DNA of 64,000 bases from Pigmentiphaga sp. NML080357 (GTDB taxonomy: Bacteria; Pseudomonadota; Gammaproteobacteria; Burkholderiales; Burkholderiaceae_B), in contig NZ_NINW01000030.1 in NCBI RefSeq assembly GCF_002188465.1, forward strand, positions 33,284 through 97,283, in the 5' to 3' direction. Position 1 is the stretch's first letter, and the number at the start of each line of letters is the position of its first letter. This document shows, in pieces, positions 49,980-64,000 of the stretch. Both the position numbers and the translations under genes were made by a program. The notes beneath the pieces were generated by a model that saw only the letters and a list, made by a program, of their open reading frames with translations, was not told the DNA's origin and made no database searches.

Positions 49980-49992
49980 GCCGTCCACGGAC

Positions 49993-50032
49993 GAAAAAAA
50001 TCCCCAGGACGGCCTAGGCTTTCCTGGGGATT
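49993..50032 (-). terminator. Intrinsic terminator read on the minus strand
   Basis: On the minus strand, AATCCCCAGGA-N12-TCCTGGGGATT is followed by TTTTTTCG. The T-run exists only in that direction, so it ends a leftward transcript, such as the tRNA-like element at 50056-50139, and not phospholipase C. Confidence 0.8.
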
Positions 50033-50055
50033 CTGGCGCCAGACGTGGCGGTGTA

Positions 50056-50139
50056 TGGTGGTGGAACACGGAACCGAACCCGCGCCCGCATATGAGGTTC
50101 GTTAGCAAAGCACTGTTCTTGAGGGTGCCCGCCTGCACC
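50056..50139 (-). pseudogene. Degenerate tRNA-like element ending in CCA
   Basis: Read leftward, an 84-nt segment ends in TTCCACC-ACCA. A 5' GGTGCAG can pair with TTCCACC at six of seven positions. GCAC/GTGC can form a D-stem. CGCGG/CCGTG form a T-stem, but around an 8-nt loop (GTTCGGTT) instead of 7. The anticodon arm does not pair well. It is followed by a leftward terminator, as a tRNA gene would be. Possibly a mutated tRNA copy or an attachment-site remnant of the adjoining island/prophage. Low certainty. Confidence 0.35.
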
Positions 50140-50220
50140 AAGTGGCCGTTTTGCTACGTGAAAAGTCTCGGCTGGGTCGGCGTCGGGTTGCGATAGTCCG
50201 AGCAGCCTCGGGGAAATCGT

Positions 50221-50240
50221 CGTCTGGGCGCGCCCAGACG
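50221..50240. repeat. Perfect 20-bp palindrome
   Basis: CGTCTGGGCG is followed immediately by its inverse complement CGCCCAGACG. Short outer arms (GGAAA and TTTCC) extend the symmetry imperfectly to 50212-50247. It lies between the tRNA-like element and the island promoter. It could be a recombinase or regulator site, or a terminator without a T-run. Confidence 0.6.
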
Positions 50241-50443
50241 AGTTTCCGCCAAGGAACATGCGGACGAGCAAGGGCGGCTGCGGGCGCTCGGCTACAACGT
50301 GAGGATCGGTGTTTGATGTGCGGCCGTGGGCGGCGCCCGCAAGGTCCCGATCAACCCACCGTCCCCTGCGCCGGACCGGCCCGCCCTGGCATACCGTCCT
50401 TGAAGATTTGAGTCACATCAATCGGCCAGCAGGTCGCTGGATG

Positions 50444-50495
50444 TTGACTCTTGACTTTCGGCATGTTTGGCGCAATATCTTGCAAAGTCTTGCAA
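50444..50495 (+). promoter_or_regulatory. Candidate promoter/operator of the stress island operon
   Basis: TTGACT (50451-50456) and CAATAT (50473-50478) are spaced 16 bp, a plausible sigma-70 pair; a second TTGACT begins at 50444. Just downstream, TCTTGCAA occurs twice with 10-bp period (50478-50485 and 50488-50495), a good layout for a bound regulator such as the first gene's HTH protein. I see no clear sigma-32 promoter. Confidence 0.45.
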
Positions 50496-50543
50496 GAATT
50501 TCCTCGAGCGAGGCCGCGTGACGACGGAACTTGTGGGGGTGGT

Positions 50544-50825
50544 ATGACAGCGCGCCAGCAGGCGATTTTCACACTCGACGAGCTGGCTGCCTACTTGAAA
50601 GTCGGCAAGCGGACGCTTTACCGGCTCGCCTCGCACGGGGAGATTCCGGCCTTCAAGGTCGGCGGGACGTGGCGGTTTCGTCAAAGTGAAATCGATCGAT
50701 GGATCAATGATCAGATCCAAGCAGGCAGAAAGAAGGAGGTGATACGCACAGATGAGCAGCCGAAGTCAGCGGAACACTCCGTTTCGTCTGGGCGCGCTGT
50801 CCGTCGCCGCAGGCAAACGGAGTGA
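50544..50825 (+). CDS. Helix-turn-helix regulator of the island (excisionase/MerR-like HTH_17)
   Basis: A 93-residue DNA-binding protein: FTLDELAAYLKVGKRTLYRLASHGEIPAFKVGGTWRFR in sequence is a classic excisionase-type winged helix, and the C-terminal 35 residues are charged. Homologues are the first gene of many TLPQC/LHR islands. Start at the ATG at 50544 after a GGGGGTGG stretch; upstream ATGs lack a site. It lies 35 bp ahead of hsp20. Whether it represses or activates the operon is unknown; tandem TCTTGCAA repeats upstream could be its target. Confidence 0.88.
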   Translation: MTARQQAIFTLDELAAYLKVGKRTLYRLASHGEIPAFKVGGTWRFRQSEIDRWINDQIQAGRKKEVIRTDEQPKSAEHSVSSGRAVRRRRQTE

Positions 50826-50860
50826 GCGAGAGTCTTCAATTTTTCTTCTGGAGGTGTGAC

Positions 50861-51430
50861 ATGGACATTGGTTTCAAGAAATTGGCTCCCTGGAACTGGT
50901 TCAAGAAGGAGCAGGAAGAACAACAGAGCACTGCCTCGCTGCCGGTGCAGCGCAATGACCTGCCGGTGGCGGGTGGGCCCGTCAGTCCCATCCTGCAATT
51001 GCATCGCGAGATCGACCGCCTGTTCGACGACGCGTTTCGAGGCTTCGGTTTCCCGACGCTGGCCATGCCACGCTGGCCGTCGGACTGGCCGGGCATGCTG
51101 AAGCCGGCGCTGGACATCCAGGAGACCGACAAGCAGTACAAGATCGCCCTGGAAGTACCCGGCGTCGAGGAAAAAGACATCCAGATCACGCTCGACAACG
51201 ACGTGCTGCTGGTGCGCGGTGAAAAGCGTCAGGAGCAGGAAACGAAAGACGGCGGTTTCCACCGGGTGGAGCGCTCCTACGGCAGCTTTCAGCGCGCTCT
51301 GAACCTGCCGGCCGATGCCAACCAGGACACGATCAAGGCCGCTTTCAAGAACGGCGTGCTCACGATCACGATGGAAAAGCGCGAGGCCAGTACGCCCAAG
51401 CAGGGGCGCTCGATCCCGATCAACGGCTGA
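50861..51430 (+). CDS. hsp20: Small heat shock protein Hsp20 of the island
   Basis: A 189-residue alpha-crystallin-type holdase that binds unfolding proteins without ATP. The N-terminal arm includes APWNWFKKEQEEQQ and a DRLFDDAFRGFGFP helix. The alpha-crystallin domain runs from PALDIQETDKQYKIALEVPGV through VLLVRGEKRQE to the GVLTITMEKRE strand. The C-terminal I-x-I type motif (SIPING) needed for oligomer assembly is present. A GGAGGTG ribosome site precedes the ATG at 50861. It would hand substrates to the downstream ClpK disaggregase. Confidence 0.95.
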   Translation: MDIGFKKLAPWNWFKKEQEEQQSTASLPVQRNDLPVAGGPVSPILQLHREIDRLFDDAFRGFGFPTLAMPRWPSDWPGMLKPALDIQETDKQYKIALEVPGVEEKDIQITLDNDVLLVRGEKRQEQETKDGGFHRVERSYGSFQRALNLPADANQDTIKAAFKNGVLTITMEKREASTPKQGRSIPING

Positions 51431-51523
51431 CGCGGGGCAGCGCGTTTTTCTCAAAAACCACAAAGAGATGAGGCACCGTGATCGGCGGTGCCTCGCCCAG
51501 TTAACCCTCTCAGGAGCATCAGC

Positions 51524-54373
51524 ATGGCCAGAAAACAATGCCAAGTCTGCGGCCAGCCCGCCACGGTGCGGGTGGAAGCCAATCTCAATGGTCGCCACAG
51601 CACCATGCTGTTGTGTGACGATCACTATCGCCAACTGGTGCGCCAGCAAAAGCGCACCGTCTCACCGCTGGAAGCCTTGTTCGGCTCGCGCAGCGGGCTG
51701 TTCGAAGACTTCCTTGGCAGCGACTTCTTCCGCATCGGTGACGACGCACCGTCCATGGCGGCCGATACCGACGAGGTCGTCGATGCCTCGTTCGGCGAAC
51801 CCGCCCCGGCCGGTACGGGCACCGCGCGCCGTCGCGGCAGTGGGCTCGCCAGCCGTATCAGCGAACAGTCCGAGGCCCTATTGCAGGAGGCCGCCCGACA
51901 CGCTGCAGAGTTCGGGCGCGCCGAAGTCGATACCGAACACCTGCTGCTGGCGCTATCCGACAGCGACGTGGTCAAGACCATCCTGGGGCAGTTCAGGATC
52001 AAGGTCGATGACCTCAAGCGACAGATCGAATCCGAAGCCAAGCGCGGCGACAAGCCGTCCGAGGGCGAGATCGGCGTGTCGCCCCGGGTCAAGGACGCGC
52101 TCAGCCGTGCTTTCGTGGCCTCCAACGAACTCGGCCACTCTTATGTCGGGCCGGAGCATTTCCTGATCGGGCTGGCCGAGGAAGGCGAAGGTTTGGCGGC
52201 CAACCTGCTGCGCCGTTACGGCCTCACGCCGCAAGCGCTGCGCCAGCAGGTAAGCAAGGTGGTCGGCAAAGGTGCCGAGGATGGCCGCGCCGAGACGCCG
52301 ACCAACACGCCCGAGCTGGATAAATACTCGCGAGACCTCACCAAAATGGCGCGCGAGGGCAAGCTCGATCCGGTTATCGGCCGCGCGCAGGAGATCGAGA
52401 CCACCATCGAGGTGCTGGCCCGGCGCAAGAAAAACAATCCGGTGCTGATCGGCGAGCCCGGCGTCGGCAAGACCGCCATCGTCGAAGGGCTGGCGCAGCG
52501 CATGGTGGCCGGCGAAGTGCCTGAGACGCTGCGTGACAAGCGCCTGGTCGAACTCAACATCAATGCCATGGTGGCCGGCGCCAAGTACCGCGGCGAGTTC
52601 GAGGAGCGCGTGCAGAAGGTACTCAAGGAAGTGACCGAGCACCAGGGGGAGCTGATTCTCTTCATCGACGAGGTGCACACCATCGTCGGTGCCGGCCAGG
52701 GTGGCGGCGAAGGCGGGCTGGACGTGGCCAACGTGTTCAAGCCGATGATGGCGCGCGGCGAACTGAACCTGATCGGCGCCACCACGCTCAACGAGTATCA
52801 GAAGTACATCGAGAAGGACGCCGCGCTGGAGCGTCGCTTCCAGCCGGTGATGGTGCCCGAGCCGACGGTAGCGCAGACCATGATGATCCTGCGCGGCCTG
52901 CGCGACACCTTCGAGGCGCACCACAAGGTCAGCATCACCGAGGATGCGATCATCGCCGCCGCCGAGTTGTCGGACCGCTACATCACCGCGCGCTTTTTGC
53001 CTGACAAGGCCATCGACCTGCTCGACCAGGCGGCCGCACGCGTGAAGCTGTCGGCCACGGCCCGCCCGGTGGCGGTGCAAGAGCTGGAGTCCGAACTGCA
53101 CCAGCTGCGGCGTGAGCAGGACTATGTGGCCTCGCGCAAGCAGTACGACAAGGCCGCCGAGCTGGGCAAGCGCATCGAGGCCAAGGAGACTGAACTCAAG
53201 AAGCTCGTCGAGGAATGGGAACGCGAGCGCGCCTCGGGCAGCGCCGAAGTCAAGGCCGAGCATGTCGCGCAGATCGTCTCGCGCCTGACCGGCATTCCGG
53301 TCAACGAGCTGACGGTGGAAGAACGCGAGAAACTGTTGCACCTGGAGCAGCGGCTGCACGAGCGCCTGGTAGGCCAGGACGAAGCGGTGCGCGCGGTAGC
53401 CGATGCCGTGCGTCTGTCGCGGGCGGGGCTGCGCGAGGGCAGCAAGCCGGTTGCTACTTTCCTGTTCCTCGGACCGACCGGCGTGGGCAAGACCGAGCTC
53501 GCCAAGGCGCTGGCCGAGTCGATCTATGGCGATGAAGGTGCGCTGCTGCGCATCGACATGTCCGAGTACGGTGAACGCCATACCGTGGCACGCCTGGTGG
53601 GCGCGCCTCCGGGCTATGTGGGCTATGACGAGGGGGGGCAGCTCACCGAGAAAGTGCGGCGCAAACCCTACAGCGTGTTGTTGCTCGATGAGATCGAAAA
53701 AGCGCACCCCGACGTCTACAACATCCTGCTGCAGGTATTCGACGACGGGCGGCTCACCGACGGCAAGGGCCGGGTGGTGGATTTCACCAATACCATCATC
53801 ATCGCCACCTCGAACTTGGGCTCGGACATCATCCAGCGTCGGCTGAAGGCCCGTGGCGCCGCCGGCGAGGAATACGAGAAGACCAAGTCCGAGGTGATGG
53901 ACGTGCTGCGCGGACACTTCCGCCCCGAGTTCCTCAACCGCATCGACGAGATCATCGTCTTCCATGCGCTGGGCAAGGAGGAGATCCGCCATATCGTCGG
54001 CCTGCAGCTCGATCGTGTGGCCCGCAACGCCGCCAGCCAGGGCGTGACGTTGACCTTCGACCAGACCTTGATCGACCACTTCGCGGAGGAAGGCTACAAA
54101 CCCGAGTTCGGCGCGCGCGAGCTCAAGCGGCTGATCCGCAGCGAGCTGGAAACCGCGCTGGCGCGCGAGATGCTGGGTGGCGGTATCGGCAAGGGCGATC
54201 ACGCCAGCGCCCGCTGGGACGACAAGGCCGAGCGGGTGGTTTTCGAGCGCAAGGAGCCACCAGTGAAGCCGGTCGAGCCTGAAAAGCCTGATGCCGCGAA
54301 AGTGGCAGAGGCGCCGTCGAGCGACGAAAGCAAGGCGACGCGCAAGAAAAAGCCGGCGGGCGGCGAATCTTGA
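51524..54373 (+). CDS. clpK: ClpK (ClpG) stand-alone AAA+ disaggregase
   Basis: A 949-residue Hsp100-family ATPase, the exact length class of ClpK/ClpG. The N-terminal zinc-binding motif (Cys6, Cys9, Cys31, His34) is the feature that separates ClpG from ClpB/ClpC and helps it bind aggregates. A Clp N-domain follows, then AAA1 with Walker A GEPGVGKT (about residue 310) and a coiled-coil M-domain ([20 protein letters not shown] region). AAA2 has Walker A GPTGVGKT (about residue 650) and the D2-small domain. The charged tail ends [13 protein letters not shown]. ClpK confers extreme heat tolerance and needs no DnaK. It follows hsp20 by 93 bp. Confidence 0.96.
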
Positions 54374-54390
54374 GTCATGGGGAGGCTGTC

Positions 54391-55821
54391 GTGTCCGACC
54401 CCAACGGGCTGACATGGGCAGCCAGCCTCGTGTCGCTGGCGGTCGCTATCCCCACAGCGGGGCACGCGGTCATCTACAAGCGTGACCCGCGCTCGGCCAC
54501 GCTGTGGGTGCTGCTGATCGCGTTGTTGCCGCTGGGCGGTTCGCTGCTGTATGGGCTGTTCGGCATCAACCGTTACCAGCGGCGGGCGCGGCGGCTGTTT
54601 CCGGGGGCAGATCCTGCTGTTCGGCAGGACCTCGCGCCTACGATGCCCCAGGCCGTATCGGCGCCGTTTGCCGGCCTGGCGCACCTGGTGGGACGTGCCA
54701 CCGGCCAGTCGCTGACCAGCGGCAACCGCATCGAGCCGCTTGTCGATGGCGAGCAGGCCTACCCGGCCATGCTCGCCGCCATCGAATCGGCGCGGTACAG
54801 CGTCGCGCTGGCTTCGTACATCTTCGACAGCCAAGGCATCGGGGCGCAGTTCGTCGATGCGCTGCGCCGGGCTCATGAGCGCGGCGTGCAAGTGCGGGTG
54901 CTGATCGACGACGTCTATGCCCGCTGGAGGCCCCGCAGCGCCTACCGCGCCTTGCAACGCGCCGGCGTTCCGGCGGCGACGTTCAACCCGACGTTGATTC
55001 CCGCGCGCCTGCATGCCGCGCATCTGCGCAATCACCGCAAGCTGCTGGTGATCGATGGCGAGACGGGTTTCACCGGCGGCATGAACATCTTCAGCCCGTA
55101 TTGGCGGCCCGATGCGCCGGAGCAGGCCTGTCACGATTTGCACTTTCGTCTGCGCGGGCCGGTGGTTGCGCATCTGATGCGGTGCTTCACCGACGATTGG
55201 TGCGATACCACGGGCGAGCGGCTCAACGAGGGTTTCTGGGGCGAACCGCCCGCAACGGCTGATGAGCAAGGAACCTCTTGGGCGCGCGGCATCGAGGCCG
55301 GTCCCGATGAGGCCCTGGACCGGCTGCGCTGGACCTTCATGGGCGCTTTGAGCGCGGCGAAGCATTCGGTGCGCATCTGGACACCTTACTTCGTGCCCGA
55401 TCAGCCGATGATCGCGGCGCTGAGCACGGCCGCGTTGCGCGGCGTGCGCGTCGAGGTGCTGACGCCCGCAAACGGCGACCATCCCACGGTGCAATGGGCC
55501 GCGCGCGCCCACTACTGGCAGGTGCTGGAGCACGGTGTACGCATCTTCGAACGGCCTGGCCCGTTCGACCACAGCAAGCTGATGCTGATAGACGGCCAGT
55601 GGTGCTGCCTGGGTTCGGCCAATTGGGATGCGCGCAGCCTGCGCCTCAACTTCGAGTTCAATGTGGAGGTGTACGACACCGCGCTGTCTACGCGGCTGGA
55701 ATCCCTTTTTGATGCCGCCCGTGATGCATCGAACGAGATATCGGCCATGGCGTTGCGCGCCCGCCCGCTGGCCATCCGCTTGCGCGACGGGGTGGCCCGT
55801 CTGTTCACCCCCATTCTCTAG
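54391..55821 (+). CDS. cls: Cardiolipin synthase-like phospholipase D-family membrane protein
   Basis: A 476-residue protein with two N-terminal hydrophobic segments (LTWAASLVSLAVAIPTAGHAV and ATLWVLLIALLPLGGSLLYGLFG, in outline) and two HKD motifs: HLRNHRKLLVIDGE in the first PLD domain and FDHSKLMLIDGQW in the second, followed by GSANWDARSLRLNFE. This is the layout of bacterial cardiolipin synthases. A GTG start at 54391 with GGGAGG 6 bp upstream is preferred; an in-frame TTG at 54370 would overlap clpK's stop. Its presence suggests membrane lipid remodelling as part of heat tolerance. Confidence 0.88.
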   Translation: MSDPNGLTWAASLVSLAVAIPTAGHAVIYKRDPRSATLWVLLIALLPLGGSLLYGLFGINRYQRRARRLFPGADPAVRQDLAPTMPQAVSAPFAGLAHLVGRATGQSLTSGNRIEPLVDGEQAYPAMLAAIESARYSVALASYIFDSQGIGAQFVDALRRAHERGVQVRVLIDDVYARWRPRSAYRALQRAGVPAATFNPTLIPARLHAAHLRNHRKLLVIDGETGFTGGMNIFSPYWRPDAPEQACHDLHFRLRGPVVAHLMRCFTDDWCDTTGERLNEGFWGEPPATADEQGTSWARGIEAGPDEALDRLRWTFMGALSAAKHSVRIWTPYFVPDQPMIAALSTAALRGVRVEVLTPANGDHPTVQWAARAHYWQVLEHGVRIFERPGPFDHSKLMLIDGQWCCLGSANWDARSLRLNFEFNVEVYDTALSTRLESLFDAARDASNEISAMALRARPLAIRLRDGVARLFTPIL

Positions 55822-55848
55822 CGGCACGACTTGCGAGGAACATTGCCC

Positions 55849-57732
55849 ATGGAAAAGAAAGATCAATGGAACATTGGCTACTGGATCGTCGCCGGCCTGT
55901 TGCTGCTGACGCTGCAGAACTACTGGCAGGCGGCCAAGACCGTCGAGCCCGTGCCCTACAGCGAATTCGAGAAGGCGCTGGCCGAGGGGCGCGTCGCCGA
56001 AGTGCTGGTGTCGGACCGCACGGTCACCGGGCGCCTGAAATCGCCGGACAGCCGGGGCAAGACCACCATCGTGGCCACTCGCGTCGAACCCGACCTGGCC
56101 GAGCGGCTGTCCAAGTACGACGTGCCTTACGCGCGGGTGGTGGAAAGCACCTGGCTGCGTGATGTGCTCTCCTGGATTCTGCCGGCGGTGGCCTTCTTCG
56201 GCGTCTGGTTCTTCCTGTTCCGCCGCTTCGCCGAGAAGCAGGGCATGGGTGGCTTCCTGAGCATCGGCAAGAGCCGTGCCAAGGTATTCATGGAGAAGAA
56301 CACTGGCGTGACCTTTGCCGATGTCGCTGGCGTCGATGAAGCCAAGGCGGAGTTGGTTGAGATCGTCGATTTCCTGAAAAACCCGCAGGATTACGGCCGC
56401 CTCGGCGCGCGCATCCCGAAAGGTGTGTTGCTGGTTGGCCCGCCCGGCACGGGCAAGACCCTGCTGGCCAAGGCCGTCGCGGGCGAGGCCGGGGTACCGT
56501 TCTTTTCCATCTCAGGCTCGGAGTTCGTCGAGATGTTCGTCGGCGTGGGTGCAGCGCGCGTGCGCGACCTGTTCGAGCAGGCCCGCGGGCAGGCGCCGGC
56601 CATCATCTTCATCGACGAGCTCGATGCGCTGGGCCGCGCGCGCGGCGTCGGCGGCCCCATCGGCGGCCACGACGAGCGCGAGCAGACCCTCAACCAGCTG
56701 CTCACGGAGATGGACGGCTTCGACAGCTCGGTCGGGCTGATCATCCTCGCCGCCACCAACCGCCCCGAAATCCTCGACCAGGCGCTGCTGCGCGCCGGTC
56801 GCTTCGACCGTCAGGTGCTGGTGGACCGGCCCGACAAGAAAGGACGGCTGGACATCCTGAAAGTCCACGTCAAGAAGGTGACGCTGGCTCAGGATATCGA
56901 TCTCGAACAGGTGGCTGCGCTGACCACGGGCTTTTCGGGTGCAGACCTCGCGAACCTGGTCAACGAGGCCGCGCTGGCCGCGACCCGGCGCAAAGCGTCC
57001 GCCGTGGAGTTGCAGGATTTCACCGCCGCCATCGAGCGCATCGTGGCGGGCCTGGAGAAGAAGAACCGAGTGCTCAATCCCAAGGAGCGGGAAACCGTGG
57101 CCTATCACGAGATGGGCCATGCGCTGGTGGCGCTGGCGCTGCCCGGCACCGACCCCGTGCACAAGATCTCAATCATCCCGCGCGGCATCGGCGCGCTGGG
57201 CTACACGCTGCAACGCCCCACCGAAGACCGCTTCCTGATGACGCGCGCCGATCTGGAACACAAGATCGCCGTGCTGCTGGGCGGTCGTGCGGCCGAGAAG
57301 CTCGTGTTCGGCGAGCTGTCCACCGGGGCTGCCGATGACCTCGCACGGGCCACCGACATTGCCCGCGACATGATCACCCGCTTTGGCATGGACGAAGGAC
57401 TGGGCTACATCGCCTTCGAGGCGCAGCGGCCCCGCTTTCTCGATACACCGGAACTGGCCCAAGGCGGCTGCCGGGTGGCCGAATCGACCCAGGCGCGCAT
57501 CGATCAGGCCATCCGCGACATCGTGATGGGCGTGTTTGATCGTGCATACCGAATTCTCGAAATTAACCGAGAAGTGCTGGAGCGGTGCGCGCGCGAACTG
57601 CTCGCACGGGAAACGCTGGATGAATACAGCATCCGGCAACTGACGCAAGGGCTACAGCTCGAATCCCCATGTCACAGCGGCCCAACTGCCGGAGCCATTA
57701 CTTCCTCTGTGTCCCAAGGAGCCACCTCATGA
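55849..57732 (+). CDS. ftsH: FtsH-type membrane AAA+ zinc metalloprotease of the island
   Basis: A 627-residue membrane-anchored protease. TM1 about residues 10-26, a periplasmic region, TM2 about 106-124. The AAA domain has Walker A GPPGTGKT (about 198-205), Walker [13 protein letters not shown] and the second region of homology ([18 protein letters not shown]). The M41 protease domain has the zinc motif [12 protein letters not shown] (about residue 420) and a third-ligand acidic region further on ([16 protein letters not shown]). It is distinct from the housekeeping ftsH normally beside rlmE. A GAGGAA site precedes the ATG. It overlaps trx by 4 bp. Confidence 0.95.
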
Positions 57733-58169
57733 GTGACAGCATTCATATCGTCTGCCCACACTGCCAATCCATCAATCGCGTGCCAGCCAACAAGTTGGCA
57801 GAGAAGCCCAATTGCGGGCGGTGCCAGCACCCGCTGTTCACCGGAGAACCCATTGATCTGACCACAGCGACCTTCGCCCGTCATCTGGAGCGCAGTGACC
57901 TGCCGCTGCTGGTTGACTTTTGGGCGCCGTGGTGCGGACCGTGCAAGATGATGGCGCCGCAGTTCGAGCAGGCAGCCTCCCTGCTTGAACCCAAGGTGAG
58001 GTTGGCCAAGGTAAATACCGAGGCCGAGCCTCACCTGGCCGCCCAGTTCGGTATTCGCAGCATTCCAACCCTGATTTTGTTCCGAGGGGGACATGAGGTT
58101 GCACGTCAGGCGGGCGCCACGGGCGCGCAGGACATTATGCGCTGGGTGGCTTCGCAATTGCCCCGATGA
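57729..58169 (+). CDS. trx: Thioredoxin with N-terminal zinc ribbon (TrxC-like)
   Basis: A 146-residue Trx2-type protein. The N-terminus carries a four-Cys zinc ribbon ([19 protein letters not shown]... NCGRC), and the thioredoxin domain has the active site [14 protein letters not shown] and the cis-Pro [11 protein letters not shown]. Zinc-ribbon thioredoxins double as redox-sensitive chaperones. The start overlaps the ftsH stop (ATGA), so translation is coupled. This gene is a constant member of LHR/TLPQC islands. Confidence 0.95.
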
Positions 58170-58244
58170 TTCAGGTGCAATCGAGTCGTCTTCTCGGACT
58201 CCCCGTTCCATTAACGTTTCATTGAAAGAGAGAGCGCAACGCTT

Positions 58245-58715
58245 ATGCATAAAGAATCTGGCCACACGGCCCTTGACAAGATGCGCTCCCAGTGGCGGTT
58301 GATGACGGTTTACGAGCGCTTCGAGCAGGTCGTTGCCATCACGCTTTCGGGCGTCATCGCGTTGGTAATTGTGATTGCGCTGATTCAGTTGATTCGGCTG
58401 GTGTTCACACTGCTCGTCATGGATGCGCTGAATCCACTGGATCATAAGGTTTTCCAGCTGGTGTTCGGTGCCACCATGACGCTGCTGATCGCCATGGAAT
58501 TCAAGCATTCGATCGTCAAAGTGGCTCTGCGCAAGGAAAGCATCATCCAGGTCAAGACCGTCATTCTGATCGCGATCCTGGCACTGGCCCGCAAGTTCAT
58601 CATCCTAGAACCCGACGTTGATCCTGCCAAAGTGGCCGCGCTGGCGGGGACGGTACTGGCCTTGGGTCTGATCTATTGGCTCATGCGTGAACGCGATGAC
58701 CGCAAGAGCGAGTAA
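58245..58715 (+). CDS. psiE: PsiE-family phosphate-starvation-inducible membrane protein
   Basis: A 156-residue inner-membrane protein with about four helices: VVAITLSGVIALVIVIALIQ, RLVFTLLVMDAL, VFGATMTLLIAMEF and a C-terminal VAALAGTVLALGLIYWLM. The signature FKHSIVKVALRKESIIQVKTVILIAILALARKFIILE (in outline) is PsiE-specific. Biochemical function is unknown, but psiE is part of the heat-resistance loci core. The GAAAGAGAG region upstream of 58245 is a moderate ribosome site. A 75-bp gap separates it from trx. Confidence 0.92.
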   Translation: MHKESGHTALDKMRSQWRLMTVYERFEQVVAITLSGVIALVIVIALIQLIRLVFTLLVMDALNPLDHKVFQLVFGATMTLLIAMEFKHSIVKVALRKESIIQVKTVILIAILALARKFIILEPDVDPAKVAALAGTVLALGLIYWLMRERDDRKSE

Positions 58716-58722
58716 TGGAGGC

Positions 58723-59688
58723 ATGACCCCCTATGGTCTAGTCGGCCGACACGATGCCAGGTCGAGGCACCGCTGGCTCAATCGCTTTCAAACCGCGCTG
58801 CTGGTTTTGACCCTGGTGGGGATCGCAGCTGCCGCTGGCAGTCTGCTGTTCGGCGAGATTGGCCTTTGGCTGGCACTGGCAACATGCGCATTGACCCTGC
58901 TGATCGAACCTGTCGCCGCCTCCGCGATGACCTTGCGTCTGTATGGCGCCCGTCCCTTGCGCCCTGATGAAGCCCCCGCAATCTGGTCGTTGCTGCGAGC
59001 GCTCGCAGCTCGCGCAGGATTGCCGAACACGCCGGTTCCGTACTATGTGCCCAGCGACATCGTCAATGCCTTTGCCACCGGCTCCAGGCGCCTTGCCTCC
59101 ATTGCCCTCACCGATGGCCTGTTCCGCAGCCTGAGTATGCGCGAACTGCAAGCCGTGCTGGCGCATGAAGTCGCGCACATCGCTCAAGAAGATCTTCGTG
59201 TCATGGGCTTGGCCGATTCGATCAGCCGGCTCACGAACCTGCTGGCGTTGTTGGGTCAGGTCGCGCTCCTGATCAGCATGCCAGCCTTGCTGGTCGGTGC
59301 AGCAGAAATTAACTGGATTGGCTTACTGTTGTTGGCCGCTTCGCCGCAACTGGCACTGCTCGCACAGTTGGGTCTGTCACGTGTGCGAGAGTTCGATGCC
59401 GACCGGATGGCAGTAGAGCTGACGGGAGATCCGCACGGGCTCGCCTCGGCGCTGGCGAAGATCGAGCGGGTGAGCCGCTCGTGGCGAGCCTGGTTGTTGC
59501 CCGGCTGGGGGAATCCCGAACCGTCCTGGTTGCGCACGCATCCGGCGACAGAGGATCGTATCGCGCGCCTGATGGCGTTGGCGCCTCAGCCATCGCAGGC
59601 CCTGCCGTTCCAAACGGAATATCTCGCGCCAAGGTCGTTCGCCCCGATGCGCCCGCCACGCCGGGGCCTGAGCGGCCTTTGGCGCTAA
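58723..59688 (+). CDS. M48-family membrane metalloprotease (HtpX-like)
   Basis: A 321-residue zinc protease. Two N-terminal hydrophobic helices (TALLVLTLVGIAAAAGSLLF, LWLALATCALTLLIEPVAA) and two more after the active site. The zinc motif is LAHEVAHIAQED, and the third ligand Glu is in SRVREFDADRMAVEL, as in HtpX. Start at the ATG at 58723 with AATGGAGG just upstream; it begins 7 bp after the psiE stop. HtpX-type proteases degrade misfolded membrane proteins, complementary to FtsH. Related M48 genes occur in several heat-resistance islands. Confidence 0.9.
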   Translation: MTPYGLVGRHDARSRHRWLNRFQTALLVLTLVGIAAAAGSLLFGEIGLWLALATCALTLLIEPVAASAMTLRLYGARPLRPDEAPAIWSLLRALAARAGLPNTPVPYYVPSDIVNAFATGSRRLASIALTDGLFRSLSMRELQAVLAHEVAHIAQEDLRVMGLADSISRLTNLLALLGQVALLISMPALLVGAAEINWIGLLLLAASPQLALLAQLGLSRVREFDADRMAVELTGDPHGLASALAKIERVSRSWRAWLLPGWGNPEPSWLRTHPATEDRIARLMALAPQPSQALPFQTEYLAPRSFAPMRPPRRGLSGLWR

Positions 59689-59711
59689 ATCACTCGAAAG
59701 GAACCCCCGCC

Positions 59712-60866
59712 ATGGCTTACCACGATCCTTACCCACAACGCCCAGCTCCGGATCATTTCGTCCGGCGGTGGCTCTTCATCACTGCGTGCGTTGCCGCACT
59801 CATGCTGTTCTGGCAGTTCCTGCCCGCCATCGAGGCCTGGTTCAGCCCGCGCCAAGCCGCTGAGCGCACCGTCACGCCGCGTGGCGATCTGGCCGCTGAC
59901 GAACAGGCCACCATCGAACTGTTCGAGAAATCCCGGGCATCGGTGGTCTACATCACGACGTCCCAACTGGTACGAGATGTCTGGACGCGCAACGTCTTTT
60001 CCGTGCCGCGCGGGACGGGTTCGGGTTTCATCTGGGATGACGCCGGTCATGTCGTTACCAACTTTCATGTGATTCAGGGGGCGTCGGAGGCCACTGTCAA
60101 ACTGGCCGACGGCCGCGATTACCAAGCCGCGCTGGTCGGCGTGAGTCCGGCCCACGATATCGCGGTGCTCAAAATCGGCGTCGGTTTCCAGCGCCCGCCC
60201 GCCGTTCCGGTCGGCACCAGCGCAGACCTCAAGGTGGGACAAAAGGTGTTCGCCATCGGCAACCCCTTCGGCCTGGATTGGACACTCACCAACGGCATCG
60301 TGTCCGCGCTCGATCGATCGCTGCCCGGGGAATCTGGCGGAGTGACCATCGAACACCTGATTCAAACCGATGCCGCCATCAACCCCGGCAACTCGGGTGG
60401 GCCGTTGCTCGATTCGGCCGGCCGCCTGATCGGCATCAACACAGCGATCTACAGCCCTTCCGGTGCATCGGCTGGGATCGGCTTCGCCGTGCCGGTGGAC
60501 ACGGTCATGCGTGTGGTGCCACAACTCATCAAGACCGGCAAATACATCCGTCCGGCGCTTGGGATCGAGGTAGACGAGCAGCTCAACCGCCGATTGCAGG
60601 CACTGACCAGTACCCAAGGCGTGTTTGTGCTCCGTGTCGCCCCTGGCTCAGCGGCGCAAAAGGCGGGGCTGAGCGGTATCACCGTTGGCCCCGAAGGCAT
60701 CGTGCCGGGAGACCGTATCACAGGCATAGACGGCGCTCCCGTCGACGATGTCGCCAAACTGCTCGCACGGCTTGACGACCGAAAGGTAGGAGATGTTGTG
60801 GTCTTGTCAGTTGAGCGGGCCGGTAAACCACGGGAAGTGCGAGTGGAGTTGCAACCTGGCGCCTGA
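59712..60866 (+). CDS. degP: DegS-like membrane-anchored trypsin-like serine protease with one PDZ domain
   Basis: A 384-residue HtrA-family protease. A single N-terminal membrane segment (WLFITACVAALMLFWQFL) anchors it to the periplasmic face. The triad is visible: His in VVTNFHVIQGAS (about residue 119), Asp in SPAHDIAVLK (about 149) and Ser in NPGNSGGPLLD (about 228). One PDZ domain follows (GVFVLRVAPGSAAQKAGL...GDRITGIDGAPVDD). One PDZ and a retained anchor make it closer to DegS/HtrA2 than to two-PDZ DegP, although island copies are usually called degP. It is the last gene of the operon. Confidence 0.93.
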   Translation: MAYHDPYPQRPAPDHFVRRWLFITACVAALMLFWQFLPAIEAWFSPRQAAERTVTPRGDLAADEQATIELFEKSRASVVYITTSQLVRDVWTRNVFSVPRGTGSGFIWDDAGHVVTNFHVIQGASEATVKLADGRDYQAALVGVSPAHDIAVLKIGVGFQRPPAVPVGTSADLKVGQKVFAIGNPFGLDWTLTNGIVSALDRSLPGESGGVTIEHLIQTDAAINPGNSGGPLLDSAGRLIGINTAIYSPSGASAGIGFAVPVDTVMRVVPQLIKTGKYIRPALGIEVDEQLNRRLQALTSTQGVFVLRVAPGSAAQKAGLSGITVGPEGIVPGDRITGIDGAPVDDVAKLLARLDDRKVGDVVVLSVERAGKPREVRVELQPGA

Positions 60867-60947
60867 TCTGGAGTTGAGGACTTCTGGGGATCGGCAAAGA
60901 ATAGCGATGGGATGCATGAAGTATTCGCGCCGCAGAAACTCGATGCC

Positions 60948-61415
60948 CTACACTTTGGTGTCCAGTAAGGAAATTTCAGCCTCTCGTCGCGCGAAGAGTC
61001 CCGGCAGCACTTTGCCGCCACCATAGACCCATCGACGCAGCTCTGTTGCGGCTGCACCCCAGTCTCGTTGGTTGATCCGCCGTCGCAGCGTCGAGGTCTG
61101 CAGCCGCCCCGCCCCGAGGTTGAACGTGAAGTCCACGATGGCAGCGAGCCTGCTCTCTGGCTCTGTGGCCAGCACCGGGCAGTAGCGCAGCGTCGCGGCG
61201 AGTGCCGATTGCAGGTCGCGCGCCAGATAGACCTCAGCTTCTGCCTCCGTGATCGGCGAATGCTTGGGATCGCAGAGATGGCCGTACCCAATCGTCCAGA
61301 ACCCTGCTGGGCAGATATAGGGAACGGCAGTGATCTCGATTCCGCGCTTCACCTTACGCTCGAATCCCTCAAAGCGCTTGGCCAGTTCGATGGCCGCCTT
61401 CGGCACCTCGATCAC
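60948..61415 (-). CDS. Phage lysozyme (endolysin), glycoside hydrolase family 24
   Basis: A 155-residue muramidase. The catalytic Glu lies in AKRFEGFERK (about residue 16), followed by CPAGFWTIGYGHL, where the family Asp position is Cys, as in many phage lysozymes of this branch, and the Thr is retained. The C-terminal domain has IVDFTFNLGAGRLQTSTLRRRIN and RRWVYGGGKVLPGLFARREAE, typical of T4-type lysozymes. No signal peptide or SAR anchor, so it needs the holin encoded upstream. The start overlaps the holin stop by 4 bp. Confidence 0.93.
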   Translation of the reverse strand: MIEVPKAAIELAKRFEGFERKVKRGIEITAVPYICPAGFWTIGYGHLCDPKHSPITEAEAEVYLARDLQSALAATLRYCPVLATEPESRLAAIVDFTFNLGAGRLQTSTLRRRINQRDWGAAATELRRWVYGGGKVLPGLFARREAEISLLDTKV

Positions 61416-61888
61416 GGCCGCACCCGGTCAAATACGCGCCCGAGGAACCAGAAGTTCAGCACCCCGGCCCAGAGGGCTTGGTCTGCCTCCGTCCAGGCAT
61501 ACAGGATGGCAACGCCCCAGCCTGTGCCACCTGTCACAGCGGCGGCGACTGTTGCTGTTTTGGTCGCACAGTACAGCGCCATGAACCAGTAGGTGATGAC
61601 CGGGCGGACGCTGGAGCTCAGCGCATCGGCCCAGCGCACACCGGTTTTCTCGCCCTGAGTGCGAACGGCTTCGCGCAAGGTTTCGATGGCTCCGACGTTC
61701 CATGCCGCGTCGGCACCCGCGCCGATTTCCGACATTCGCTGCGCGCCGCGCAGCTTCTCGAACTCCAGCGCCTTGTCCTGCATCGCCAGTTCGTGGCCAC
61801 GCTCTCCCTTGCGGTCAAGCCATTTGAGGATTTCAGGTGCAAGACGGAAGGCCCCGCCGAGCAATCCTCCGAGCAGGGTCTCGATCAT
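61412..61888 (-). CDS. Phage 3TM-type holin
   Basis: A 158-residue protein starting IETLLGGLLGGAFRLAPEILKWLDRKGERGHEL (in outline), a charged coiled stretch and then hydrophobic segments VITYWFMALYCATKTATVAAAV and WAGVLNFWFLGRVF. This pattern is found in tailed phages of Pseudomonas and Burkholderia directly before lysozyme genes, annotated as 3TM-type holin. It would form membrane lesions that release the lysozyme. Overlaps both neighbours by 4 bp. Confidence 0.85.
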   Translation of the reverse strand: MIETLLGGLLGGAFRLAPEILKWLDRKGERGHELAMQDKALEFEKLRGAQRMSEIGAGADAAWNVGAIETLREAVRTQGEKTGVRWADALSSSVRPVITYWFMALYCATKTATVAAAVTGGTGWGVAILYAWTEADQALWAGVLNFWFLGRVFDRVRP

Positions 61889-62184
61889 TGCGAGCCTCCC
61901 ATGAGCTTGAACTTGATCGCGGCGCCGACCAACAGCGCGGCCAGCAGGCCAGTGGTCAGCACCTTCACGAAGGTCTGCCAGGCGGTGCGACGGGCGTCGC
62001 GCCAGGCATCAAGGAGGTCGCGCAGCTCGCGGATGTCGCGGGCGGCACTGCCGTTCTCCAGGCCCAGGTGGGCGAGGCAGCGCTCGGCACCGCGTTCGGC
62101 GGCGCAGTCGAGCAGTTCCTCGAAGTCCTCGCGGCGCAGCAGGACCATGTTCTCGACGAGGGCGGGTTTGGCGTCTTCGGTCAT
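61885..62184 (-). CDS. DUF6127-family phage protein
   Basis: A 99-residue protein: MVLLRREDFEELLDCAAERGAERCLAHLGLEN, a helical linker ARDIRELRDLLDAWRDARR and one C-terminal membrane segment (VLTTGLLAALLVGAAIKF), in order. This matches DUF6127, a family found next to lysis genes. A single membrane anchor and cytoplasmic helical part suggest a lysis accessory or spanin-like role, unproven. Start at ATG 62184; a leftward terminator separates it from the tail gene upstream. Confidence 0.8.
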   Translation of the reverse strand: MTEDAKPALVENMVLLRREDFEELLDCAAERGAERCLAHLGLENGSAARDIRELRDLLDAWRDARRTAWQTFVKVLTTGLLAALLVGAAIKFKLMGGSQ

Positions 62185-62200
62185 AGGTGGTCTCCAGAAA

Positions 62201-62227
62201 CGAAAAACCCGCCACGTGGGCGGGTTC
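62201..62227 (-). terminator. Intrinsic terminator inside the prophage late region
   Basis: Leftward reading: AACCCGCC-CACG-TGGCGGGTT followed by TTTCGTTTC. It lies between the DUF2793 gene and the lysis cassette, so part of the late transcript may end here and lysis genes may have separate control. Confidence 0.75.
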
Positions 62228-62251
62228 GAGATAGTGGGGTGGGGATGCGGT

Positions 62252-62605
62252 TCAGATGGGCAGGCCGGCGCTCCAGCCGGTGGGCTTGTAGACGGCGAGC
62301 ACGTCCTCGTCCTCGATGAAGCAGGTCCAGCCGATCTTCGGGACGTAGAAGAACCACGCACCCTCAAGGCGCACTGCAATCTGCCCGGCCTTTCCGGCCC
62401 ACGCGCCTGTGGGACTGGATGCCACGATGTAGCGCTCGCCGTTCGCTGGAGCGGTCGGCGGGCTTGCCAAGGTGCGCGACTTCACCGACAACTGCAGCAC
62501 CGCATCGAGCAGTTTCAGGTTGGCATCCATTCCGGTGTTCCATCCCGACTCGCGGGCGCTCCAGCCGTAGTTCATGCCCAGGTTCGGGCCGATCAGTGCT
62601 GCCAT
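62252..62605 (-). CDS. DUF2793 phage tail/fibre-associated protein
   Basis: A 117-residue protein with PNLGMNYGWSARESGWNTGMDANLKLLDAVLQLSVKSRT in outline, then SPPTAPANGERYIVASSPTGAW and AVRLEGAWFFYVPKIGW: the DUF2793 pattern. Such modules occur after tail-tip genes and are thought to be part of the tail fibre or host-contact device. Start at the ATG at 62605 with GGAGAATGAA directly upstream; an earlier ATG at 62647 would overlap the tail gene's 3' end. It is followed by a terminator. Confidence 0.82.
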   Translation of the reverse strand: MAALIGPNLGMNYGWSARESGWNTGMDANLKLLDAVLQLSVKSRTLASPPTAPANGERYIVASSPTGAWAGKAGQIAVRLEGAWFFYVPKIGWTCFIEDEDVLAVYKPTGWSAGLPI

Positions 62606-62606
62606 T

Positions 62607-64000
62607 TCATTCTCCGTAGGTGGCCCCGTAGAACATGCCGTAGCCACGGCACTCGGGGATGTCGATCTGCTGGGCCTGCCAGCTGGTGTACCCGTCGCGC
62701 ACCGCCTCGACCTTGACGGTCAGTTTTTCGTTCGGTCGGTTCAGGCCGCTTTCGGCGACTTCGGTGGCCATTGGATAGGTCCAGTTCGTGCCGGTCACTC
62801 CCGTTTCTACGTGCTTGAGCGTGCCGGCCTCGCCATAGATCCGCACGGTGTACGTCGTGCCTGGCTCCGGCCCGATATTGGTTTCTCCCTGCGTCACCAG
62901 ATAGGAGGTCTGCAGTACCCGGCTGCGGTGTGCCCAGCTGACCGTCAGTTCCCCTGTGATGTGACTCACGGTGTAGTCAAGGTTGTTGACCCTGAACCTG
63001 CCGGGTGGATAAGGCCTGATCTGCCGCTTGGCAAAGGTGTATCTGATCGAGGCGGCCGAGGCTTCCGCCAAGCGCCCCATCCCGGTCGCGGGCAGCACCT
63101 TGGCTTGCACCGTCTCGCCGCTCAGATACTGGGCCGTGGTGTAAAACTGCCCACCTTCGACGAAGTACAGCCGGGTGCCGGCCGCGTGTTTCGCGGGTAC
63201 CGTATCCAGCACGCCGCGATCCACCGACACGGTGCCGGCCGCGACATCGATTGCCCTGACCGCAACCAGTTCTCCGCCGAGCTGCGCGTAGGTGTCCAGC
63301 GCCACTAAATCCAGATCGACGCTGTAGAGGACATTCAGCACGGTTTCGGTTTGCCCGATGTCGTTCGCCAGCACGCACGACGGGACGAAGTCGCCGACAC
63401 CGATCATCTCGAAAGCCGCCGAGCCCTGCCGGGTCAGTACCGTGTAGTTGATGGCTGCATTCGAGGGCCGCACGACGGAGACAGACAGGAATCCGCCGTC
63501 CGGATCAATCTCGGCCTGTGCGGCGGCAGACTCGCCGGTGAGCTCGCGCACGAGGGTCCAGTACGGCAGTTCGCTCACCGACACGAAATTCGCCGCGATC
63601 GGCGCTTGCCGGGGATCGGCCCAGCCGCTCTCGGCGGGTGCGAGATAAACGGCATCAGGCAGGCCGAACACATCCTCGACACAGGTGATCCGCACCCGGC
63701 CGTCGGCCAGCGTCCCGTAGCTGATCTGCGCGACCCTAAGGATCAATTGCTCGATCCGCAGCTCGGGCCAGGAGAATCTGAACACGTCGCCGATGTTGAG
63801 GCTGGCGGCCGTGCGGTTGGCCACCAGCGTGACCTTCGCCAGAGTGGACGAAAGCTGACGTAGATCCCGCATCGCGAGGCGTGCGGCTAAGGCGCCGTTG
63901 GCCACGCCCTCGTAGCTGACCTTGGCATCCTTGATTTCCCCCAGGGACCGTTCAATGCCGGCGATGTCCTGCACCGAGATCGACACACTCTTGTCGGTCG
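62607..64000 (-). CDS. Phage tail-tip protein, C-terminal part (5' end outside window)
   Basis: At least 464 residues, open to the right edge. The visible part contains a beta-rich baseplate-hub-like region (LPYWTLVRELTGESAAAQAEI, VVRPSNAAINYTVLTR) and fibronectin-like C-terminal strands (VSHITGELTVSWAHRSRV, PGTTYTVRIYGEAGTLKHVE). It resembles the tail-tip/host-specificity proteins of long-tailed phages (lambda J or GTA TIM-barrel-type). Its stop is 1 bp before the DUF2793 start. The reading frame has no interruption, so it looks intact as far as visible. Confidence 0.82.
   Translation of the reverse strand, partial: TDKSVSISVQDIAGIERSLGEIKDAKVSYEGVANGALAARLAMRDLRQLSSTLAKVTLVANRTAASLNIGDVFRFSWPELRIEQLILRVAQISYGTLADGRVRITCVEDVFGLPDAVYLAPAESGWADPRQAPIAANFVSVSELPYWTLVRELTGESAAAQAEIDPDGGFLSVSVVRPSNAAINYTVLTRQGSAAFEMIGVGDFVPSCVLANDIGQTETVLNVLYSVDLDLVALDTYAQLGGELVAVRAIDVAAGTVSVDRGVLDTVPAKHAAGTRLYFVEGGQFYTTAQYLSGETVQAKVLPATGMGRLAEASAASIRYTFAKRQIRPYPPGRFRVNNLDYTVSHITGELTVSWAHRSRVLQTSYLVTQGETNIGPEPGTTYTVRIYGEAGTLKHVETGVTGTNWTYPMATEVAESGLNRPNEKLTVKVEAVRDGYTSWQAQQIDIPECRGYGMFYGATYGE

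What the first reader, a model, noticed from the sequence alone, without database searches (positions are those of the whole stretch)
50400..60900. Compact LHR/TLPQC heat-resistance island with a cardiolipin synthase and FtsH but no yfdX/hdeD/kefB
Nine co-directional genes combine a holdase (Hsp20), a stand-alone disaggregase (ClpK), three proteases of different type and location (FtsH, M48, DegS-like), a zinc-ribbon thioredoxin, a lipid-synthesis enzyme and PsiE. Known loci (LHR in Enterobacteriaceae, TLPQC in Pseudomonas) share this core. Here the set is reduced to one copy of each function and includes membrane lipid remodelling. A minimal version in a Bordetella-like host is useful for defining which genes are needed.
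Basis: partly seen in the sequence, partly recalled or inferred. Interest (0 to 1): 0.85.

Follow-up and report, generated by a model that had tools for sequence, protein, structure and literature searches.

The report
Heat-resistance island riding a prophage
A nine-gene block that is predicted to protect a bacterium from heat sits beside the lysis and tail genes of what is likely a decayed bacterial virus, in a slot where related viruses carry anti-virus defence genes, so such viruses have likely helped to spread heat resistance between bacteria.

Summary
The nine co-directional genes are real. [quoted passage not shown] also LHR or TLPQC). Cardiolipin synthase and FtsH are published parts of it, and the same contiguous nine genes occur in 12 of 54 loci, so compactness is not the news.

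The surroundings are. Right of degP lie endolysin, holin-position and tail genes of an AcaML1-like temperate phage. The block 50,196-63,998, island plus phage genes, is 97.5-98.3% identical in two Cupriavidus genomes. In C. gilardii it lies inside a 64-kb complete-looking prophage that ends at the tmRNA gene (ssrA), the published AcaML1 site. In this Pigmentiphaga genome the island likely lies between tmRNA and its neighbour gene (contig join inferred); a same-genus genome shows the empty site. The prophage here lacks head and replication genes.

The tLST fills a cargo slot between phage end and endolysin. Of 20 such slots found in 399 Burkholderiales genomes, 3 hold a tLST, 13 restriction or other defence genes, 4 are unresolved. 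An endolysin or its scar, or a cut-off PLD-like gene, remains beside many other tLSTs. Heat resistance and phage transfer were not tested.

The parts
50056..50089 (-). att-like left border of the element: degenerate copy of the tmRNA 3' end
   Evidence: almost the same as the copy that flanks the G010 element; against the tmRNA end itself the similarity is weak (3 of 1178 background segments score as high; no BLAST match at E 0.01). Homology with same-genus genomes stops at 50,030-50,064
50196..50314 (+). 3' remnant of a PLD-like gene of the phage's restriction cluster
   Evidence: matches the last 119 bp of the 479-aa gene in C. cauae; the PLD-like match of that gene is weak
50544..50825 (+). 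HTH regulator (orf1/dna)
   Evidence: phrog_66 1e-14 on the longer ORF; 90% to the E. coli tLST protein
50861..51430 (+). small heat-shock protein Hsp20
   Evidence: PF00011 1.4e-28; 95% to the E. coli tLST protein
51524..54373 (+). ClpK disaggregase (ORF opens at 51,488)
   Evidence: NF033606 2157.6 bits, cut-off 1900; 97% to E. coli tLST ClpK
54391..55821 (+). cardiolipin synthase
   Evidence: TIGR04265 299 bits, cut-off 290; 95%
55849..57732 (+). FtsH protease; last 22 residues differ from the E. coli form
   Evidence: TIGR01241 778 bits; 98% over 605 residues; tail
57729..58169 (+). zinc-ribbon thioredoxin, overlaps the ftsH stop
   Evidence: PF00085, PF21352; NF008229 over its cut-off
58245..58715 (+). 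PsiE-family protein
   Evidence: PF06146 7.8e-29
58687..59688 (+). M48 protease (HtpX-like)
   Evidence: PF01435 2.9e-31
59712..60866 (+). S1C serine protease (DegP/HtrA type)
   Evidence: PF13365 and PDZ; 87% to E. coli tLST DegP
60948..61415 (-). phage endolysin
   Evidence: phrog_7 1.3e-45; AcaML1 lysozyme region 78.8% DNA
61412..61888 (-). holin-position phage protein, phrog_6637 (function unknown in PHROGs)
   Evidence: 2e-58; AcaML1 gp63 lies in the matching place
61885..62361 (-). phage protein, phrog_10540 over its last 95 residues
   Evidence: 6.2e-44
62252..62647 (-). phage tail-fibre-like protein
   Evidence: phrog_5363 7.1e-50, phrog_35360 7.7e-34
62607..63986 (-). phage tail protein; the gene runs on past the contig end (828-aa ORF in C. 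cauae)
   Evidence: phrog_1101 1.7e-150, profile 357-814 of 1405; ORF

Best explanation
The nine genes are a compact transmissible locus of stress tolerance that lies beside phage lysis and tail genes, likely as cargo of a decayed AcaML1-like prophage inserted at the tmRNA gene, and that is predicted to keep cells alive in heat by holding, disaggregating and degrading damaged proteins. Predicted by family and not tested here: Hsp20 holds unfolding proteins, ClpK pulls them out of aggregates, FtsH, the M48 and the DegP-type protease remove the rest at the membrane and in the periplasm, Cls and PsiE act on the membrane, thioredoxin keeps thiols reduced. The island converges with the phage late genes, so it would be expressed in the lysogen without the lytic programme (inferred). 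The phage carries it where its relatives carry restriction and defence systems: between its end and the endolysin. Here the prophage has lost head, terminase, replication and large-recombinase genes, so the island is likely fixed in this strain.
For: Island identity. Phage genes at the right. One block, island plus phage genes, matches C. cauae (98.3%) and C. gilardii (97.5%) over 50,196-63,998, 94.5-100% per kb, while host DNA beside tmRNA is about 69-82% against C. cauae. C. gilardii: tmRNA at one end, a 19-bp exact tmRNA 3' copy at the other, 64.0 kb, with head, portal, terminase, primase-type and recombinase genes and the tLST inside. AcaML1 is an inducible temperate phage in ssrA (PMC3826726, passages). 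G000: tmRNA at C2:197592-198013; the 1,620 bp that start at the base after its CCA end are 98.8% identical to C. gilardii and 99.6% to G010; then phage tail DNA, 96% to C. gilardii. Empty site: in G007, 76 bp separate tmRNA from sequence homologous to the window's left flank, a phospholipase C-type gene. Slot: AcaML1 has dcm-mcrBC there, the second prophage of G000 hsdMSR; in G014 contig C12 the PLD-like gene adjoins the endolysin without a tLST. Slot survey: 3 tLST, 13 defence or restriction, 4 unresolved, of 20. The 5 tLST genomes among 399 have endolysin (3) or an endolysin scar (2) beside degP.
Against: The contig ends inside the phage. The join from C13 to C2 across about 0.6 kb of collapsed repeat is inferred; four contig ends meet there (C13, C36, C2, C22), and the other pairing would put the tLST on the fuller prophage after a rearrangement. 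The left att-like copy resembles the tmRNA end only weakly. The element has no large recombinase and no head genes in the parts seen. No beta/gamma-type ClpK among the three IMG/VR hits nor in 50,697 phage records (all matches below 60% identity); only a cut-off tLST degP beside endolysin in 2 of 80 viral contigs looked at. 14 of 31 loci with degP and sequence beyond it show no endolysin trace, E. coli among them. No induction, particle, expression or heat data.
Confidence: 0.82

Rival explanations
1. The tLST is an ordinary genomic island that happens to lie beside an unrelated prophage; phage genes and island arrived separately.
For: tLSTs are known on plasmids, ICEs and beside transposons. 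14 of 31 loci have no endolysin trace at degP.
Against: Island and phage genes share junctions in several genera; identity is even over both; in C. gilardii the tLST is inside a tmRNA-bounded prophage; G014 has one prophage with and one without the tLST in this slot.
Confidence: 0.07
2. The element at ssrA is a phage satellite or degenerate island that borrowed lysis and tail genes and moves with helper phages; it never was a full phage with tLST.
For: In G000 and G010 only tail/lysis or lysis genes, a small recombinase gene and TacAT-like genes remain beside the tLST; G000 has a second, fuller AcaML1-like prophage.
Against: C. gilardii and G014 carry the same arrangement with head, terminase and replication genes. 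No satellite-type replication or capsid-size gene was seen; none was searched for by model.
Confidence: 0.1
3. The compact form is a streamlined minimal heat-resistance set kept by selection, made by loss of the envelope module and kefB.
For: kefB scars in five loci show loss of kefB there; the nine-gene set recurs in 12 of 54 loci.
Against: In 17 checked loci without the envelope module ftsH runs into trx over 63-69 nt in several unlike forms, which fits a module gained later in the other lineage as well as a loss. No phenotype data.
Confidence: 0.3

Closest known systems
tLSTa / TLPQC-1 (P. aeruginosa SG17M and Betaproteobacteria; PMC8290217, PMC5347186)
   Same: dna-hsp20-clpK-cls-ftsH-trx-psiE-M48-degP; the review says that SG17M tLSTa lacks the envelope module and that related beta/gamma sequences lack it too
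   Different: kefB is absent here; the carrier is an AcaML1-like prophage remnant at ssrA, not an ICE at tRNA-Gly or a plasmid as described
tLST2/LHR-type island on E. coli plasmid pKL53-L
   Same: 95.4% DNA identity over dna to ftsH; a remnant of the same PLD-like gene upstream
   Different: adds sHsp20-GI, yfdX1, yfdX2, hdeD, orf11 and kefB, stands beside a Tn7-like set and IS elements, no endolysin trace
Acidithiobacillus phage AcaML1 (JX507079)
   Same: lysis-gene homology, ssrA as integration site (PMC3826726 passages), cargo next to endolysin
   Different: AcaML1 carries dcm-mcrBC, no tLST; the element here has lost most phage genes
[quoted passage not shown] coli (Kamal 2021; title only, in a reference list)
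   Same: a heat-tolerance island on a phage-derived replicon
   Different: phage-plasmid of another phage type; the paper is not held, so no details were compared

Membership tests
tLST (LHR/TLPQC) | core dna-hsp20-clpK (clpG) in this order | tested here: met
   named as the core in PMC8290217
tLST (LHR/TLPQC) | homeostasis module with cls and ftsH (tLSTa, tLST2, TLPQC-1) | tested here: met
tLST (LHR/TLPQC) | second small heat-shock protein and envelope module yfdX1, yfdX2, hdeD (variable between variants) | tested here: not met
   variants without the envelope module are published
tLST (LHR/TLPQC) | oxidative module trx, kefB, orf14 (psiE), orf15 (M48), degP | tested here: inconclusive
   all but kefB present
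tLST (LHR/TLPQC) | raises survival in heat | not testable with these tools
   needs deletion and killing curves
AcaML1-like prophage | homologous endolysin, holin-position and tail genes in the same order | tested here: met
AcaML1-like prophage | integration at ssrA (tmRNA) | tested here: inconclusive
   phage DNA begins at the base after the tmRNA CCA end on contig C2 and G007 shows the empty site, but the join from C2 to the window contig is inferred
AcaML1-like prophage | large recombinase (gp3), head, terminase and primase genes | tested here: not met
   not found on the window or the C2 stretch; present in C. gilardii. So the element here is filed as a remnant, not as an intact member
AcaML1-like prophage | inducible, forms particles | not testable with these tools
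   needs an induction experiment

The most novel reading that the evidence does not exclude
AcaML1-like temperate phages were the original vehicle of the tLST: the island settled in their defence-cargo slot between a restriction-cluster gene and the endolysin, and the plasmid and ICE versions in Enterobacteriaceae and other bacteria are escaped phage cargo that still shows the cut-off PLD-like gene at one end or an endolysin scar at the other. Heat tolerance would then be a lysogenic-conversion trait interchangeable with anti-phage defence.
Probability: 0.4. Interest if true: 0.82.

Novelty: new variant of a known kind. Interest (0 to 1): 0.62.

Why it matters
The review of this island says that current data do not reliably show its origin (passage). 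A phage vehicle with a fixed slot gives a concrete route for its spread and sequence scars to trace it by. It also puts a stress-survival island in the same cargo position as restriction, DISARM, Hma and Mza systems, which suggests that these phages pay their hosts in either currency. Both points can be tested by excision and particle assays.

Tried and rejected
Considered and dropped: (1) cls and ftsH as an unusual addition: both are published parts. (2) A compact form private to this host: 12 of 54 loci have it. (3) The left genes of the C. cauae element as phage recombinases, my first guess from the AcaML1 gene order: Pfam shows HsdR, YgjP-like and weakly PLD-like proteins. (4) A tyrosine integrase: no Phage_integrase match inside the prophage coordinates of the two Cupriavidus genomes; AcaML1-type gp2/gp3 recombinase genes are there. 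(5) A sigma-70 promoter before the island: the strict scan of 50,200-61,100 found one site, on the other strand, below the shuffle mean. (6) A structured RNA in 49,500-61,000: no Rfam match up to E 0.1. (7) Phage records with this ClpK: all matches below 60% identity. (8) IMG/VR ClpK: one alphaproteobacterial-type cluster (L162, 72%) and two 55% hits, not used.

Rows dropped before counts: of the 80 loci, L078-L105 (28 loci, ClpK 70-73%, other gene order) were left out, which cover the window, L007 and L026-L077 (54 in all). The one search list was itself capped at 80 of 551 confirmed. The endolysin count uses the 31 of the 54 with degP and at least 200 bp beyond it. In one search a loose threshold flagged kefB in five loci; one search showed scars. 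Of 376 confirmed viral contigs 80 were returned; two of the 80 had no recognisable endolysin. In one search two further genomes (G300, G252) have a ClpK relative below the cut-off and were not counted.
Full report
What is in the window. The region 50,544-60,866 holds nine + strand genes: HTH regulator, Hsp20, ClpK, Cls, FtsH, thioredoxin, PsiE, M48 protease, DegP-type protease. ClpK passes the NCBIfam model NF033606 with 2157.6 bits against a cut-off of 1900. Compared gene by gene with the tLST on E. coli plasmid pKL53-L, the first five proteins are 90-98% identical and the last four 67-87%. At DNA level 95.4% identity runs over 7.35 kb. Matches occur in 1334 of 72,556 plasmid records and in 149 of 5426 E. 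coli genomes; no record covers 80% of the query.

Compactness. Of 54 loci (window, L007, L026-L077), 12 have exactly these nine genes in a row, 3 have the nine with a 3.1-3.2-kb insert between trx and psiE, 19 have at least one of sHsp20-GI, yfdX1, yfdX2, hdeD, orf11 or kefB, and 20 lack these extras but are incomplete, some cut by contig ends. In two other loci, L193 and L194, the stretch between trx and psiE carries a PAS-GGDEF-EAL gene. Five loci keep kefB scars. In the 17 checked loci without the envelope module ftsH leads into trx over 63-69 nt; in the 4 checked with it FtsH ends in a short tail and about 4.4 kb follow before trx. The review PMC8290217 (abstract and passages seen) already names cls and FtsH as parts and says that sequences near tLSTa lack the envelope module. 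So this part of the finding is a kefB-less, tLSTa-like variant of a known kind.

The right flank is a phage. Downstream of degP, on the - strand, lie an endolysin, a holin-position protein (phrog_6637), a phrog_10540 protein, a tail-fibre-like and a tail protein. The closest phage record is Acidithiobacillus phage AcaML1, 78.8% DNA over 1.09 kb. PMC3826726 (passages seen) describes AcaML1 as an inducible temperate phage integrated in the tmRNA gene; its text says 72 kb, its table 59,363 bp with 10-bp repeats.

Island and phage genes match as one piece. The block 50,196-63,998 matches Cupriavidus cauae (98.3%) and C. gilardii (97.5%) without a break. Identity per kb is 94.5-100% over island and phage genes alike. 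Host DNA beside tmRNA is only about 69-82% identical between this genome and C. cauae. Pigmentiphaga and Cupriavidus are of different families.

In C. gilardii the prophage looks complete. On one contig it runs from a 19-bp exact copy of the tmRNA 3' end to the tmRNA gene itself, 64.0 kb; a further 21-bp copy with one mismatch lies 4 kb outside. In order it carries weak hsdM- and hsdS-like matches, HsdR, YgjP-like and PLD-like genes, the nine-gene tLST, endolysin, tail genes, major capsid, protease, portal, terminase, methylases, a partial primase match, a regulator, gp4-gp3-gp2 genes and a GNAT gene. A second near-complete case is Burkholderiaceae bacterium PBA (G014 contig C15), with a kefB-bearing tLST in the same place; its tmRNA end was not resolved. 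C. cauae has a 37.7-kb version with an internal gap of about 16 kb.

The site in this genome. The intact tmRNA lies on contig C2:197592-198013. The 1,620 bp that start at the base after its CCA end are 98.8% identical to the C. gilardii prophage end and 99.6% to Pigmentiphaga G010. They hold a TacA-like antitoxin gene, a GNAT gene and a gp2-type gene. Then phage tail DNA follows, 96% to C. gilardii, up to the contig end. The window's contig ends about 0.6 kb away in C. gilardii coordinates. Four contig ends of G000 meet at this collapsed repeat: C13 (window) and C36 on one side, C2 and C22 on the other. I pair C13 with C2, and C36 with C22, because C. gilardii has the first combination on one contig, because C. 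cauae C6 has the second on one contig (hsdM and hsdR 94-99%, recombinase matches at the same identities as C22), and because in G007 the tmRNA 3' end is 76 bp from sequence homologous to the window's left flank, which ends in a phospholipase C-type gene. This pairing is an inference. On it the element is about 21 kb and lacks head, terminase, replication and large-recombinase genes in the parts seen. Its left border, 50,056-50,089, is nearly the same as the copy at the G010 element, but resembles the tmRNA end itself only weakly: 3 of 1178 background segments score as high. In G010 the element is about 14 kb, also beside tmRNA, with the other form of the distal genes.

The slot. In AcaML1 the stretch between endolysin and phage end holds dcm, mcrBC and IS elements. 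The second prophage of G000 (contig C36) holds a type I system hsdMSR there. In G014 contig C12 the PLD-like gene adjoins the endolysin, with no tLST between them. I then searched 399 Burkholderiales genomes with the phrog_6637 protein: 14 genomes, 20 places. In the slots of these 20 (18 fetched, plus G000 C13 and C36) there is a tLST in 3 (G000 C13; G389; G327, this one with yfdX and hdeD), restriction or other defence proteins in 13 (C36, L189-L192, L195, L198-L202, L204, L206: type I, type III, McrB-like, DISARM, Hma, Mza, and methylase/helicase sets of weaker standing in L192, L201 and L204; L190 and L191 lie in one genome and are alike), and 4 are unresolved (L196, L203, L205; L197 is cut by the contig end). 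Not every slot protein was scanned: 30 were given to PADLOC. Among the same 399 genomes ClpK passes the cut-off in 4. With G327, whose contig stops in ftsH, 5 genomes have a tLST; these 5 have endolysin DNA beside degP, 3 near-complete and 2 as a scar of 28 and 41 residues.

Scars elsewhere. Among 31 loci with degP and at least 200 bp beyond it, the window included, 9 have a near-complete endolysin and 6 a 41-residue endolysin fragment about 30 bp after degP; two more have a weak, frame-broken form; 14 have none. A PLD-like gene or its 3' remnant lies upstream of the island in 18 of 54, with E. coli, Pantoea, Citrobacter, Enterobacter and Kluyvera among them. In E. coli pKL53-L this stretch is 95-96% identical DNA to that of C. 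cauae. That these islands left a phage is an inference; a restriction cluster that met the tLST before the phage did would leave the same upstream remnant.

Viral collections. No ClpK of this type appeared in IMG/VR or among phage records. Of 80 viral contigs returned with the phrog_6637 protein, 78 have a recognisable endolysin; 15 of these end within 100 bp of it, and 2 show tLST degP directly beyond it before they end. That virus callers trim prophages at the endolysin and so hide the cargo is my inference.

Function. I saw no heat or expression data for this strain. The mechanism is taken from the protein families and from the review passages. Island and phage late genes converge, so separate expression in the lysogen is likely but untested.

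Literature. The rows listed (titles and starts of abstracts) show no paper that describes a tLST inside an AcaML1-like prophage; the library is open-access PMC only. PMC5347186 (passages and section 9 part 1) lists C. gilardii CR3 as a TLPQC-1 carrier and says that chromosomal islands lie in larger mobile elements, data not shown, some in an ICE at tRNA-Gly. PMC8290217 says that tLSTs are flanked by transposases or phage-derived genes. A tLST on a P1-derived plasmid is known to me by title only. So phage-derived surroundings were noted before; the ssrA prophage, the slot and the scars are what is added.

Noticed in passing
L151:8454-9232 (G000 contig C2, 0.4 kb past the tmRNA): TacA-like antitoxin gene plus GNAT gene at the tmRNA end of the prophage, in a 1.6-kb stretch 98.8-99.6% identical in three genomes of two families.
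   Followed up: partly
L193:5149-7803, L194:5166-7973; inserts in L033, L042, L059: A PAS-GGDEF-EAL gene sits between trx and psiE where other islands have kefB (checked in L193 and L194), with a repeated piece of the trx end; the window lacks it.
   Followed up: partly
L026, L027, L032, L041, L072, between trx and psiE: Short kefB fragments remain, so kefB was deleted in this group.
   Followed up: yes
L107:16618-19116 (G010): A second set of gp2-gp3-gp4 type genes lies directly beyond the att-like copy, which suggests tandem prophages at ssrA.
   Followed up: partly
G000 contigs C22 and C36: A second, fuller AcaML1-like prophage with hsdMSR cargo and a differently arranged recombinase pair; a tRNA-Phe lies on its C22 flank.
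   Followed up: partly
L078-L105; L162 (IMG/VR): An alphaproteobacterial ClpK cluster, 70-73% identical, with another gene order, one copy on a contig called viral.
   Followed up: no
L196, L203, L205 (slots next to endolysin): Slot genes that match no defence model strongly; possible other cargo.
   Followed up: no
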